A DNA stretch of 64,000 nt from Rhizobium viscosum. Lineage in GTDB: Bacteria > Pseudomonadota > Alphaproteobacteria > Rhizobiales > Rhizobiaceae. A program made the translations under genes and the position numbers. The stretch's first letter is position 1. Every line of letters starts with the position of its first letter. The notes beneath the pieces are model-generated. The model had not been told where the DNA came from. It made no database searches and saw only the letters and a list, made by a program, of their open reading frames with translations. Where the stretch lies: contig NZ_JADBEC010000001.1 in NCBI RefSeq assembly GCF_014873945.1, forward strand, positions 124,001 through 188,000, in the 5' to 3' direction. This document shows positions 27,458 to 45,665 of this stretch, in pieces.

Positions 27458-27715
27458 ATGGACATCTCGCGCGCAGAACAGCGCATCCTGCACCTTATGG
27501 CCCAGGGCGGCCGTATCGAAATTACCCGCGATGACAATAAAAAGATCGAAACGGTGAGTTGTTTCACCCGCGACGGCTGGGTCTATCCCGGCTTCGGCAT
27601 GGAGCTTTTCCGCAAGCTGAAACGGCTGAAGGCAATCAAATCTTCCGCCGGTCAGCCCTATCGGATCACCGAAAGAGGACTGCAGCTCGTCAGGTCGCAG
27701 CTCGATAATAGATAG
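27458..27715 (+). CDS. YjhX family protein (UPF0386; possible toxin)
   Basis: 85 residues matching UPF0386/YjhX: MDISRAEQRILHLMAQGGRI at the N-terminus and PYRITERGLQLVRSQLDNR at the C-terminus, a winged-helix-like profile. E. coli YjhX has been described as the toxin of a YjhX/YjhQ pair, but most rhizobial members stand alone and their activity is untested. No antitoxin is co-directional here; the nearest acetyltransferase is divergent, 321 bp away. The gene is preceded by a 258-bp spacer. Confidence 0.8.
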   Translation: MDISRAEQRILHLMAQGGRIEITRDDNKKIETVSCFTRDGWVYPGFGMELFRKLKRLKAIKSSAGQPYRITERGLQLVRSQLDNR

Positions 27716-28043: not shown

Positions 28044-28076
28044 GAGGCCCTCCTCGCAAAGACCTCCTTCTATAAC

Positions 28077-28107
28077 AGGCGCCGCCTCGAAATCCGAGAC
28101 GGCGCCT
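28077..28107 (-). terminator. Hairpin downstream of the slipin gene
   Basis: AGGCGCCG and CGGCGCCT enclose a second stem CTCG/CGAG. It lies 8 bp after the slipin stop on the minus strand. The T-run is poor (TGTTATAG), so termination may be partial. Confidence 0.45.
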
Positions 28108-28115
28108 GCCTTTCT

Positions 28116-29258
28116 TCAATCGCGGAGATTGATGATGTCATTCATCAATCCGCCGGTGCCGTTGTGGATGGTCAGGTGACCAACCTTGCCAGCAATGGTT
28201 TCAAGGGCCTCAAGCTCCTTCAGACGCAGCATGACCGGGTTTTCGGCCATGACCTTCGCCGTGTTGAGGAGCGAACGCGTGGCGTTCGTTTCCTCACGGC
28301 GACGAATGACATTCGCTTCGGCCTGCTTCTCAGCAGCAACGACCTGGTTGAGGATCTCACGCATCTCACCCGGCAGGATCACGTCCTTGAGTTCGATACC
28401 GGAAACCTCGATGCCAACAGCCGCCATGTCCTCACGGACCTTTTCGGCGGCTTCGGCATTGATCGTCACCTTACGCTCGAGAATCTGGTCGAGGGTCAGG
28501 CTGCCAAGCGTGCGGCGGAAGACAAACTGAAGCGCGCGGTAGAGCCCATCCGAGAAGTCCTTCACCACAGTCACCGCCTTGACCGGGTCTACGACACGGT
28601 ATTCGGCAGAGATGTTGATACGGATCGTCACGCGGTCACGGGTCAGGAGTTCCTGGCCAGCAACATCGAGCGTCTGCCACTTCAGGTCGATCACCTTCAC
28701 CTGGAAAGCCTTGCCGACATTCCAGAAAGAGTGGATGCCTGCGGACAGCATTCCGGACTGCACGCCGTCAATGAAAAGCAGGCCGACCTGTCCCTCATTG
28801 ACCAGATGCACGCTCACCGCCTCGGCCTTTCGGGCCTGCACGATGCGGCGCATCAGCGCCGGGTCGACGGTCAGCTTCTCCGAAACGTCGATCCGCTTTT
28901 CCGCCCAGGGTCCAGCGTCCTTCCAGACGATCAGCTTCTGGTTCGGCAGCATTACTGCAAAGATTGCGCCATCCCGCTCGATCACCGCCACCTCCGCGGC
29001 AGCGGTGCGGAAAACGGCCAGGCTCTGCTCGGCGACATCAGGGAACTTGTCGAACAGAGCCTTCTCGTAAGCCGAAACGAATACCGGGTTGTTCAGGTCG
29101 TGGCGGGCGATCTCAAGACTATTGCGTGTGTTCGGCAGCCAGTGCAGGCCCGATCCGTACACACCTATAGTCTGGCCCTTGTTCAGGGCGATCACACGTT
29201 CATTTTCCTTCACAAGGACGCGCCTGCGTCCCAAAATCATCGAGAGAAGTTCTATCAT
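28116..29258 (-). CDS. Slipin-like SPFH/band 7 protein
   Basis: 380 residues. The SPFH domain covers about residues 150-330: INISAEYRVVDPVKAVTVVK, LDQILERKVTINAEAAEKV, and GIEVSGIELKDVILPGEMR. A charged coiled-coil tail follows (AAEKQAEANVIRRREETNAT). A preceding region of about 150 residues has VLVKENERVIALNKGQTIG. These proteins organise membrane microdomains at the inner face of the membrane. No NfeD-type protease partner is adjacent, so this is the eoslipin/orphan arrangement. Confidence 0.85.
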   Translation of the reverse strand: MIELLSMILGRRRVLVKENERVIALNKGQTIGVYGSGLHWLPNTRNSLEIARHDLNNPVFVSAYEKALFDKFPDVAEQSLAVFRTAAAEVAVIERDGAIFAVMLPNQKLIVWKDAGPWAEKRIDVSEKLTVDPALMRRIVQARKAEAVSVHLVNEGQVGLLFIDGVQSGMLSAGIHSFWNVGKAFQVKVIDLKWQTLDVAGQELLTRDRVTIRINISAEYRVVDPVKAVTVVKDFSDGLYRALQFVFRRTLGSLTLDQILERKVTINAEAAEKVREDMAAVGIEVSGIELKDVILPGEMREILNQVVAAEKQAEANVIRRREETNATRSLLNTAKVMAENPVMLRLKELEALETIAGKVGHLTIHNGTGGLMNDIINLRD

Positions 29259-29586
29259 GTTCGTTGCTCCTTCGGTTCGCTAAGTCATCGACCGATTTTT
29301 CCTTGCGTTTGTGTTTCACTCGTTCAGTTCAGGCATTCATACCCGGCATTGATCCGGGAACCGGTGGCAGGCGGCGTCTGCGGAACAATAGGAGAGGACG
29401 CTGCGGCAGGCAGGCGGGCCTTGGAGCGTGCTCCTCGGCAGACCGGTCTGCGGCTTGATCGTCACTATCGTTCTGGCTTGCGCCCCTGGTTCTGGAATGG
29501 GCCGAGACCTTTCAGCCTCTTTCCGCTCCTCGACATTCCGGTCCCCGAACCGTCAATTTCAGCTTTTCTGGTACCGCAAACCAGCG
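29259..29586. other. Intergenic region upstream of the slipin gene
   Basis: About 330 bases without a supported ORF. It lies between the slipin start and the divergent tRNA pair. I find no clear promoter or repeat. Confidence 0.4.
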
Positions 29587-29657
29587 CTTGGAGAAGGATT
29601 CGAACCTTCGACATTCAGATTACAAGTCTGACGCTCTACCCACTGAGCCATCCAATG
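29587..29657 (-). tRNA. Divergent tRNA-Thr-like gene (anticodon TGT)
   Basis: The D-arm (GCTC, AGTGGGTA, GAGC), anticodon arm (TCAGA, CTTGTAA, TCTGA) and T-arm (GAAGG, TTCGAAT, CCTTC) are all perfect. The acceptor stem pairs only at five positions (TTGGA/TCCAA), the first two pairs are mismatched, and no CCA is encoded. Its 5' end overlaps the CCA of the next tRNA by two bases. It may be a tRNA gene in decay or one matured by processing from a shared precursor. Confidence 0.6.
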
Positions 29658-29730
29658 GTGCAAATAGTAGGACTCGAACCCACGACCTCCGGATGCCAAA
29701 TCCGGCGCTCTTCCTCTGAGCTATATCCGC
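29656..29730 (-). tRNA. Divergent tRNA gene (anticodon TGG, Pro by codon)
   Basis: 75 nt with CCA encoded. The acceptor GCGGATA pairs with TATTTGC (two G:T pairs), the D-arm is GCTC/GAGC, the anticodon stem CCGGA/TCCGG encloses TTTGGCA, and the T-arm is GTGGG/CCTAC. Position 37 is C where tRNA-Pro has G, and the first pair is G1:C72, which is not the bacterial proline identity pair. The body resembles tRNA-Gly more than the canonical tRNA-Pro at 791-867. Its decoding role is uncertain. Confidence 0.65.
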
Positions 29731-29935
29731 TTCCGACCTCCGATGCGGCATCCGTATACAGGGCGGCAAAGCCGGCTGCACGAGAGGAGGTTTTGAACTC
29801 CATCCGTTGATGTCCACACCGGCTGACGACCGGGAGGCTGCGTTTAAGGTATTTCGCGGTGTTATGGCAATGGGAAAATTGAAACGCTAAGTTGCGAACC
29901 TCCGTTCGTTGCACAAATGCAACAGGCTTGCCGCG

Positions 29936-30436
29936 CTAGTCCTCGGCTAATTGCTTCTGCAAATGCACCTTTTCGAGTGGGACGCCCATGCTCTTCGCAA
30001 ACTCGATACCATGCCAGATGATCTTGAAACCGCAGCGCTCGTAAAGGCGGATTGCACCGCTGTTCTTCGCATGCGTGTCGAGCCGCGCCGTTTCCAGGCC
30101 TTCGCCTTTCATCAGCTCGCAGAGATGAAACAGCAGCGCTTTGCCGATGCCTTTGCCCTGATGATCGGGATGCACCCAAAGGTCGGAAATATAGTTTGGC
30201 ACATTCTCCCGTGCGCTCCAGCCGACGATTCCTCCGTCAAGTTCAGCGACGAAGATCTCACCCATCGTCTCATCCGGAAAAATCGCGAATTCCTGCTTCA
30301 CCCGGTCGATGACAGCGGGATCTCGATAGCTGTCTTCAAAGGCGTTGCTTGCTGCCCATGCGGCAAAACCAACAACGCCGACCATTTTGTGGTCGGCGTC
30401 TGCAATCTTTCGTATCGTTGGAGCGGTTACCACCAC
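29936..30436 (-). CDS. GNAT-family N-acetyltransferase
   Basis: 166 residues starting at GTG and overlapping the 3' end of gatA by 10 bases, so it is coupled to gatCA. Motif A is [16 protein letters not shown], and [13 protein letters not shown] closes the fold. [18 protein letters not shown] is close to the corresponding segment of the GNAT upstream of gatB ([18 protein letters not shown]), so the two are probably paralogues. Substrate is unknown. Confidence 0.85.
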
Positions 30437-45235: not shown

Positions 45236-45544
45236 GCCCTACCCCGCATTGATCTGCCATCTTCGGCTTCTGCATTTATAGCGCAGGATCTGCGCGCGGA
45301 AACGCCGGTATTTGAAATATGCAAATTCCTCACTGGTCTTAATTAGGTCAGCCGTTAACGAAACACTAACCGCATCATTGCTAATATATACTCGTTGCGA
45401 AGAGGCATGCATGAACCGCATAGCCCTCATGAATATATTGCACTGCAAAAGAATCAAAAGTCATACTATTTACCTCGTATCGAAGCACGGGGATGGCGCC
45501 CCGGCCCGGGTTTCCGGAAGCCTGCGGATGATATGTCCGTGACG

Positions 45545-45665
45545 AGATTCGCAGACGCGCACTCCTCCTCCCAGCGCCCTGCGATAGACTGGCAACACTC
45601 CTCCTCCCAGTTGCCAGTCACCATCATGACGCCCGCCGGATCCTCCTCCGGTGGGCGTTTTGCTT
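45545..45665 (+). ncRNA. NfeR1/cuckoo-type anti-Shine-Dalgarno small RNA
   Basis: Three consecutive hairpins. Hairpin 1 (45550-45583) and hairpin 2 (45588-45618; stem ACTGGCAAC/GTTGCCAGT) share an identical 13-base loop, ACTCCTCCTCCCA. Hairpin 3 (45629-45658) has the loop ATCCTCCT in an ACGCCCGCCGG/CCGGTGGGCGT stem followed by TTTT, a Rho-independent terminator. CCUCCUCCC loops in each hairpin are the hallmark of the alphaproteobacterial cuckoo RNA family, including rhizobial alpha-r14/NfeR1, which base-pair with Shine-Dalgarno sequences to repress mRNAs. The 5' end is estimated; I could not place its promoter. Confidence 0.78.

What the first reader, a model, noticed from the sequence alone, without database searches (positions are those of the whole stretch)
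29587..29730. Tandem pair of divergent, overlapping tRNA genes
Two minus-strand tRNA genes overlap at the CCA of the first. One has anticodon TGG but C37 and a G1:C72 pair that do not fit bacterial tRNA-Pro, and its body resembles tRNA-Gly. The other has anticodon TGT with perfect arms but only five acceptor pairs and no CCA. A canonical tRNA-Pro(TGG) is already present at 791-867. This looks like a remnant of a mobile tRNA array, or tRNAs with another role. Nothing mobile remains around it.
Basis: partly seen in the sequence, partly recalled or inferred. Interest (0 to 1): 0.72.

Follow-up and report, generated by a model that had tools for sequence, protein, structure and literature searches.

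The report
Bait tRNAs with ever-changing anticodons
Two overlapping tRNA-shaped genes stand, behind a conserved folded RNA element, just before the gene of an SPFH scaffold protein, an arrangement that recurs in other bacteria with different anticodon loops and sometimes beside RNA-repair genes; the pair likely serves as bait for enzymes that cut tRNAs.

Summary
The pair is real (Rfam tRNA 63.6 and 62.6 bits) and is not a decayed tRNA array. Of 80 named slipin loci, 73 have ARAGORN tRNAs 200-650 nt upstream on the same strand; of 30 slipin genomes among 297 of the order, 25 do. In 8 of 9 loci from other classes RtcB lies beside the module. Five congeners lack the cassette at this site. Across species the second unit keeps its body and a decoding-type loop while its anticodon changes: in 23 Mesorhizobium-group loci, positions 34-35 changed 10 and 8 times (fourfold sites: mean 2.45). 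Its loops copy real tRNA loops beyond the triplet (22 of 40 distinct loops; shuffled mean 13.1). The first unit mostly has loops of 4-6 nt. Inference: bait or sensor RNAs for anticodon nucleases, linked to SPFH scaffolding and RNA repair. An SPFH-associated 'tRNA-like molecule' is in print (recalled abstract, Burroughs and Aravind 2016); the overlapping pair, loop mimicry and 5' element I did not find described.

The parts
29842..29870 (-). Predicted sigma70-like promoter, -35 TTGCCA (29865-29870), 17 nt, -10 TTAAAC (29842-29847)
   Evidence: Read by eye; G019 has TTGCCA-N17-CTAGAC at the same place. Not tested for function.
29746..29816 (-). Core of the conserved structured 5' RNA element, four helices (model R1 match with flanks 29724-29832)
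   Evidence: 42-sequence alignment A3: 19 of 21 pairs with double-sided compensatory changes, 91.6% of cells paired against 72.4% shuffled; 89.7 bits, the only hit in the 64-kb window (the window is one of the 42 training sequences). No Rfam family at the gathering score.
29656..29730 (-). tRNA-shaped unit 1: loop TTTGGCA (anticodon TGG, C37), 7 acceptor pairs (two G-U), encoded CCA
   Evidence: ARAGORN, Rfam tRNA 63.6 bits.
29584..29657 (-). tRNA-shaped unit 2: loop CTTGTAA (anticodon TGT), 5 acceptor pairs, no CCA, overlaps the CCA of unit 1
   Evidence: ARAGORN, Rfam tRNA 62.6 bits at 29588-29655.
29259..29583 (-). Leader between the pair and the SPFH gene
   Evidence: Position only; a spacing of this order recurs in relatives.
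28116..29258 (-). SPFH/Band-7 (slipin-family) gene, 380 aa
   Evidence: Pfam Band_7 E 1e-31; stomatin chains in the PDB by sequence; AlphaFold2 pLDDT 84.6, pTM 0.60, best fold matches stomatin, also major vault protein.
28055..29952 (-). Cassette (approximate edges) absent from five congeners at this site
   Evidence: blastn of the flanks against L242-L246, with no slipin hit and no ARAGORN tRNA there, no R1 hit; three junctions read.

Best explanation
The two genes are tandem tRNA-shaped RNA units that, with a covarying structured RNA element before them and an SPFH/Band-7 (slipin-family) gene after them, form a module that in some relatives from other classes lies beside RtcB in RtcR-type RNA-repair loci, and unit 2 likely works as bait whose anticodon loop imitates a real tRNA so that anticodon-cutting nucleases would cut it instead of, or as an alarm for, the cell's own tRNAs. 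Shown by sequence: linkage to the SPFH gene, the conserved element, rtc context in relatives, fast-changing anticodon in unit 2, loop likeness to real tRNAs, presence or absence as one cassette. Inferred: the RNA is made and processed into tRNA-like units; nucleases that read the anticodon loop cut unit 2; unit 1, whose loop is usually 4-6 nt, cannot be cut or imitates a cut and trimmed product; the SPFH protein oligomerises and gathers the RNA with repair enzymes; cut bait with a 2',3'-cyclic phosphate could, where RtcR is present, also feed RtcR. In this genome no rtc gene is adjacent; the one substantial RtcB match is an RtcB-PrfH pair elsewhere on the chromosome, besides a short RtcB fragment on C2.
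For: Linkage: 73 of 80 slipin loci have an ARAGORN tRNA at -650..-200 on the same strand (34 two or more, 39 one), against 15 tRNAs in the rest of 835 kb; 25 of 30 slipin genomes of the order, 29 of 30 by arm motifs; a blind search with the 5' element model hit 24 of 297 genomes, 20 of them directly upstream of a slipin gene. RNA repair: 8 of 9 loci from other classes have RtcB within the flank; RtcR confirmed in the five loci where I scanned for it (L180, L181, L182, L184, L188) and RtcA in three (L180, L181, L183); RtcB in 17 of 30 slipin genomes against 42 of 267 others. Variability: in 23 Mesorhizobium-group loci pi is 0.72 and 0.66 at positions 34 and 35 against a mean of 0.24 at 80 fourfold sites; 10 and 8 parsimony changes against a mean of 2.45. 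Mimicry: 22 of 40 distinct unit-2/single loops with U33 match positions 34-38 of a tRNA of the window's genome; 20,000 shuffles of positions 37-38 gave mean 13.1, maximum 21. In print: an rtc operon is activated by broken tRNAs and RtcR binds 5' tRNA fragments with cyclic phosphate ends (Hughes 2020, PMC7790460, abstract). A tRNA gene PA4581.1, whose number puts it by the P. aeruginosa rtc genes (PA4582-PA4584, PMC8619066, passage), was among the most up-regulated genes in a late isolate, meaning unknown (PMC8743555, passage).
Against: No transcript, cleavage or binding was tested. The window's own locus has no rtc gene. Half of the loci parse with only one canonical unit (48 of 111; 8 none), so the pair is not the only form. 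The slipin tree used ignores recombination, 3 of 80 fourfold sites change 8 or more times, and two T-stem columns of unit 1 also changed 8 times. Position 36 is not faster than fourfold sites (pi 0.24). 18 of 40 distinct loops do not match a tRNA of this genome at 34-38, and four have A34 anticodons other than ACG, unusual in bacteria (recalled). Unit 1 shows no mimicry (of 9 distinct 7-nt loops 0 match exactly, 1 at 34-38). 13 of 30 slipin genomes lack RtcB. In nine rtc-type or related loci from other classes the 5' element model found a convincing match upstream of slipin in four only.
Confidence: 0.5

Rival explanations
1. The RNA is a structural partner of the SPFH protein, as Y RNA is of Rsr: element and tRNA-shaped units tether processing or repair enzymes to an SPFH oligomer, and the anticodon loop varies because nothing reads it.
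For: Tight linkage and conserved element; YrlA RNAs, which also carry tRNA-like arms, were hit by the same pattern, two loci above and one below Rfam's cut-off, with RtcB-family genes beside all three and Rsr-type genes beside two.
Against: Free drift does not predict loops that copy real tRNA loops at positions 37-38, U33 in 43 of 50 and purine 37 in 49 of 50 seven-nt unit-2 loops, or changes at 34-35 above the fourfold mean.
Confidence: 0.22
2. The units are a cis-acting leader: tRNA processing enzymes or synthetases act on them to control expression of the SPFH gene.
For: The units lie in the presumed 5' leader of the SPFH gene, same strand, 200-650 nt upstream.
Against: The distance is long and variable; a synthetase-based switch would be expected to keep one anticodon, which is among the most variable parts.
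Confidence: 0.13
3. The units are spare or nuclease-proof tRNAs that keep translation going after tRNA damage, as proposed for phage tRNAs.
For: Loops of unit 2 look decodable; phage tRNAs are proposed or shown to do this (PMC10264068 and PMC11555353, abstracts).
Against: Unit 2 here has 5 acceptor pairs and no CCA, in Mesorhizobium three clear pairs by eye; unit 1 mostly has 4-6 nt loops; one body with many anticodons ignores synthetase identity. But some other lineages keep a full acceptor and CCA (by eye).
Confidence: 0.08
4. A decayed tRNA array left by a mobile element.
For: Patchy occurrence and loss or gain as a cassette.
Against: Stems kept while sequence changes, same neighbour gene in several classes and in Bryobacterales, no slipin relative in viral contigs.
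Confidence: 0.02

Closest known systems
SPFH/Band-7-associated 'novel tRNA-like molecule' of RNA-repair systems (Burroughs and Aravind 2016, NAR 44:8525; abstract recalled, text not held; the reference itself is cited in PMC7790460)
   Same: SPFH/Band-7 gene, tRNA-like RNA, RtcB/RtcA context in relatives.
   Different: Here an overlapping pair, no rtc neighbour, a fast-changing anticodon that copies real loops, and a 5' covarying element. Whether that paper describes any of these I could not read.
rsr-yrlBA-rtcBA operon, YrlA Y RNA (Hughes 2020, abstract and passages)
   Same: Noncoding RNA with a tRNA-like domain in an RtcR-controlled repair operon; the authors name competitive inhibition of the anticodon nuclease by YrlA as a possibility (passage).
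   Different: YrlA is permuted (T-arm before D-arm) and goes with Rsr; here complete tRNA order and an SPFH protein.
Phage tRNAs against anticodon nucleases (PMC10264068, PMC11555353, abstracts)
   Same: Anticodon-loop sequence or tRNA supply shaped by tRNA-cutting enzymes.
   Different: Those are tRNAs of phages; these are host-encoded, linked to SPFH, with loops that match host tRNAs.
Eukaryotic vault (MVP plus vault RNA)

Membership tests
SPFH-associated tRNA-like RNA of RNA-repair systems | tRNA-like RNA directly upstream of an SPFH/Band-7 gene | tested here: met
   recurrence.
SPFH-associated tRNA-like RNA of RNA-repair systems | RtcB/RtcA repair genes in the locus | tested here: inconclusive
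   Not in this window's locus; RtcB beside the module in 8 of 9 loci from other classes, RtcR/RtcA in several; genome-level co-occurrence 17 of 30 against 42 of 267.
SPFH-associated tRNA-like RNA of RNA-repair systems | Same secondary structure as the published molecule | not testable with these tools
   The paper is not held.
Decoding tRNA | 7-nt anticodon loop with U33 and purine 37 | tested here: inconclusive
   Unit 1 not met (C37), unit 2 met; family-wide 11 of 55 unit 1 and 50 of 55 unit 2 loops have 7 nt.
Decoding tRNA | 7-bp acceptor and CCA end | tested here: inconclusive
   Unit 1 met; unit 2 has 5 pairs and no encoded CCA, though CCA could be added.
Decoding tRNA | One anticodon kept with one body among relatives | tested here: not met
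   12 anticodons among 43 unit-2 loops of 7 nt with U33; body near invariant in the Mesorhizobium group.
YrlA Y RNA | T-arm before D-arm around an acceptor-like hairpin, next to rsr | tested here: not met
   Rfam YrlA 19.1 bits against a cut-off of 69, across the unit junction; true YrlA loci score up to 92.5; no Rsr among the window ORFs scanned or slipin loci.
Phage or integrative-element tRNA array | Mobile genes or phage relatives of the locus | tested here: not met
   No phage or plasmid record covers 80% of the query at blastn sensitivity; slipin not found in viral contigs; no mobile gene among the six ORFs scanned.
Major vault protein-like cage | MVP repeats, SPFH shoulder and cap helix in that order | tested here: inconclusive
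   Three of ten MVP rows align from model residue 12-15 onward, the others from about 148.

The most novel reading that the evidence does not exclude
A host-encoded family of bait tRNAs in an arms race with anticodon nucleases: each lineage swaps the anticodon loop of the tRNA then under attack onto a fixed body, and a vault-like SPFH ribonucleoprotein holds the baits and hands cut ones to repair or alarm.
Probability: 0.25. Interest if true: 0.9.

Novelty: new variant of a known kind. Interest (0 to 1): 0.74.

Why it matters
Why some rtc RNA-repair loci carry SPFH proteins, and what they repair or sense in nature, is open. A linked RNA whose anticodon loop records which tRNA is under attack would make this testable and would give a readout of anticodon-nuclease pressure across bacteria. 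It also warns that genes annotated as tRNAs just before such SPFH genes may not be decoding tRNAs.

Tried and rejected
Mobile array: rejected (see rivals). Decoding tRNAs: disfavoured. Phage or plasmid origin: the matches listed are partial and mostly on annotated tRNAs or unannotated stretches; none covers 80% of the query. RtcR/sigma54 control at the window: a strict pattern found a site in 5 of 120 upstream regions (1.28 expected in shuffles), four of them RtcR-type or RtcB-linked loci; the fifth, in the window, lies inside the upstream acetyltransferase gene, because my script took a chance T-arm motif as the first unit. MFE of the 252-nt window RNA is not more stable than shuffles (z -1.14; 25 of 200 shuffles fold at least as well). 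Three blind R1 hits outside slipin genomes (G049, G181, G208): no slipin or ARAGORN tRNA nearby, taken as chance; the G044 hit is on another contig than its slipin. R1 on nine loci from other classes: clear or fair matches upstream of slipin in L186, L187, L183 and L180; one weak (E 0.46) in L181, whose better hit is elsewhere; none in L182, L184, L185, L188. A fixed partner protein beside slipin: in the 80 loci no cluster recurs beyond lineage synteny as far as I could see from the listed clusters. Of the 80 loci 7 have no ARAGORN tRNA in the slot; most of those read by eye hold degenerate units. Print searches for slipin/SPFH with tRNA-like, RtcB or anticodon (listings seen): no title or abstract start describes the pair, within that open-access library only. 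The N-terminal part of the protein was not folded alone.

Full report
What is there. The window's minus strand holds two tRNA-shaped genes that overlap by two bases at the CCA of the first: 29656-29730, anticodon TGG, and 29584-29657, anticodon TGT, 63.6 and 62.6 bits with the Rfam tRNA model.

The neighbour that matters. The next gene on the same strand (28116-29258) encodes a 380-residue SPFH/Band-7 protein of the slipin family. The first homologues of the pair, in G019 of the same genus (89%) and G045 of another family (77%), lie before the same gene, yet with other anticodon loops. A pattern for tRNAs set this close hit 10 of 397 genomes of the order, the window's included; 6 of the 10 have a slipin gene just downstream. 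Three others are YrlA RNAs (Rfam above cut-off in L031 and L037, below it in L040) beside RtcB-family genes, two of them beside Rsr-type genes; the tenth (L039) I did not resolve.

Linkage seen from the protein. Of the 80 loci, 73 have at least one ARAGORN tRNA 200-650 nt upstream on the same strand: 34 two or more, 39 one, 7 none; all the rest of 835 kb holds 15. Loci include Rhizobium, Mesorhizobium, Labrys, Roseibium, Rhodobacteraceae, sphingomonads, Caulobacterales, Bryobacterales (one unit) and Gammaproteobacteria. Among 297 genomes of the order 30 have the slipin; 25 of the 30 have ARAGORN tRNAs upstream, 29 of 30 the arm motifs. Among 299 genomes of the phylum 16 have it; of the 12 new loci 10 have ARAGORN tRNAs and 12 the motifs. 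The named and unnamed sets may share some genomes.

A conserved 5' element. Some 30-55 nt before the first unit's D-arm lies a structured element. On 42 sequences RNAalifold gives 21 pairs, 19 with changes on both sides; 91.6% of cells pair against 72.4% in shuffles, with 187 double changes against 57, 0 of 500 shuffles reaching either. The structure was derived from these same sequences, and shuffles ignore relatedness, so these numbers lean towards it. The model found 32 of 40 slipin loci given to it, at least four of which repeat training loci, one place in the 64-kb window, and, blind to the protein, 24 of 297 genomes: 20 hits directly upstream of the slipin, one on another contig of a slipin genome, three judged chance. 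In loci from other classes it fades: four of nine. Rfam has no family for it at the gathering score in the window or 11 loci.

RNA repair. In 8 of 9 slipin loci from other classes RtcB lies within the flank. L180 shows the whole order: divergent RtcR, a sigma54-like TGGCACATCACTTGA, a weak match to the element (20.8 bits), three tandem units, SPFH, RtcB, RtcA. RtcR was confirmed by Pfam in the five loci scanned for it (L180, L181, L182, L184, L188), RtcA in L180, L181 and L183; Lysobacter niastensis has the pair, SPFH and RtcB in a row. In the order, RtcB occurs in 17 of 30 slipin genomes and 42 of 267 others (Fisher p 2.3e-6; by genus 15 of 19 against 27 of 103, p 2.1e-5; one of the 59 RtcB genomes is below Pfam's cut-off, and related genomes are not independent). 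The window's own genome has an RtcB gene overlapping a peptide chain release factor H gene, far from the pair, and an RtcB fragment on C2. In print: PaFlo8, an SPFH protein of P. aeruginosa, lies in the rtc locus (PMC13086221, passage); an Anabaena slipin is listed with rtcB among genes of the TrcR repressor, which also silences a tRNA operon (PMC10272220, passages).

Anticodons. By motif parsing, 55 of 111 loci have two units with canonical D-arms, 48 one, 8 none. Unit 1 loops: 30 of 55 have 6 nt, 7 have 5, 5 have 4, 11 have 7, two are longer. Unit 2 loops: 50 of 55 have 7 nt; of these 43 have U33 and 49 a purine at 37; the 43 show 12 anticodons. In 23 Mesorhizobium-group loci with shared neighbours (one record is named only as a bacterium) the unit-2 body hardly changes while positions 34 and 35 reach pi 0.72 and 0.66 (position 36: 0.24) against a mean of 0.24 at 80 fourfold sites of the adjacent gene; parsimony counts 10 and 8 changes against a mean of 2.45, 3 of 80 fourfold sites having 8 or more; two unit-1 T-stem columns also have 8.

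Mimicry. Against 39 loops of tRNAs (38 distinct 34-38 pentamers) of the window's genome, used as a stand-in for all genomes, 22 of 40 distinct U33 loops from unit 2 and single units match at 34-38; shuffling positions 37-38 among them gives mean 13.1 and at most 21 in 20,000. By occurrence 42 of 54 seven-nt unit-2 loops match; unit 1 gives 1 of 11. tRNA-Ile(GAT) was not among the 40 tRNAs fetched. The window's unit 2 has CTTGTAA, the cell's tRNA-Thr(TGT) TTTGTAA.

Cassette. In five congeners the flanks of the module are there but slipin, tRNAs and element are not. In four of them 26-52 nt separate the aligned acetyltransferase side from the small ORF downstream; in L244 the alignment leaves 213 nt. 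Rhizobium terrae, R. hainanense and Rhizobium sp. P38BS-XIX carry the module between the same outer flanks, with differences in between.

Verdict. That the pair is the RNA part of an SPFH-linked module seems near certain; the bait mechanism is an inference at about even odds.

Noticed in passing
L031, L037, L040 (wider: L047, L048, L049): YrlA Y RNAs found by the same pattern, several copies per locus, with RtcB-family genes; L047 and L048 also carry Rsr-type genes.
   Followed up: partly
L090, L092, L094, L098, L104, L110: Rhodobacterales and some others have a degenerate first unit, one full tRNA unit and then a mini unit of anticodon-like hairpin plus T-arm (read by eye).
   Followed up: partly
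L116, L119, L120, L121: Bryobacterales/Solibacter loci show a single tRNA-shaped unit, some with full acceptor and CCA.
   Followed up: partly
L034 1409-1492: Unit 2 carries a long insertion in the anticodon region (read by eye).
   Followed up: no
L126 and L128: Slipin loci near ordinary-looking tRNA clusters in Gammaproteobacteria.
   Followed up: no
window 29908-29923: Palindrome GTTGCATTTGTGCAAC (minus strand) near the upstream edge of the cassette; a similar one in G019.
   Followed up: no
window 27458-27715: YjhX-family protein (Pfam: putative toxin of a toxin-antitoxin pair) on the plus strand between the cassette and gatB.
   Followed up: no
window 45544-45663: Alphaproteobacterial sRNA ar14, 99.9 bits.
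   Followed up: no
L161 5871-7695: RtcB gene overlapping a release factor H gene in the window's genome, elsewhere on C1.
   Followed up: partly
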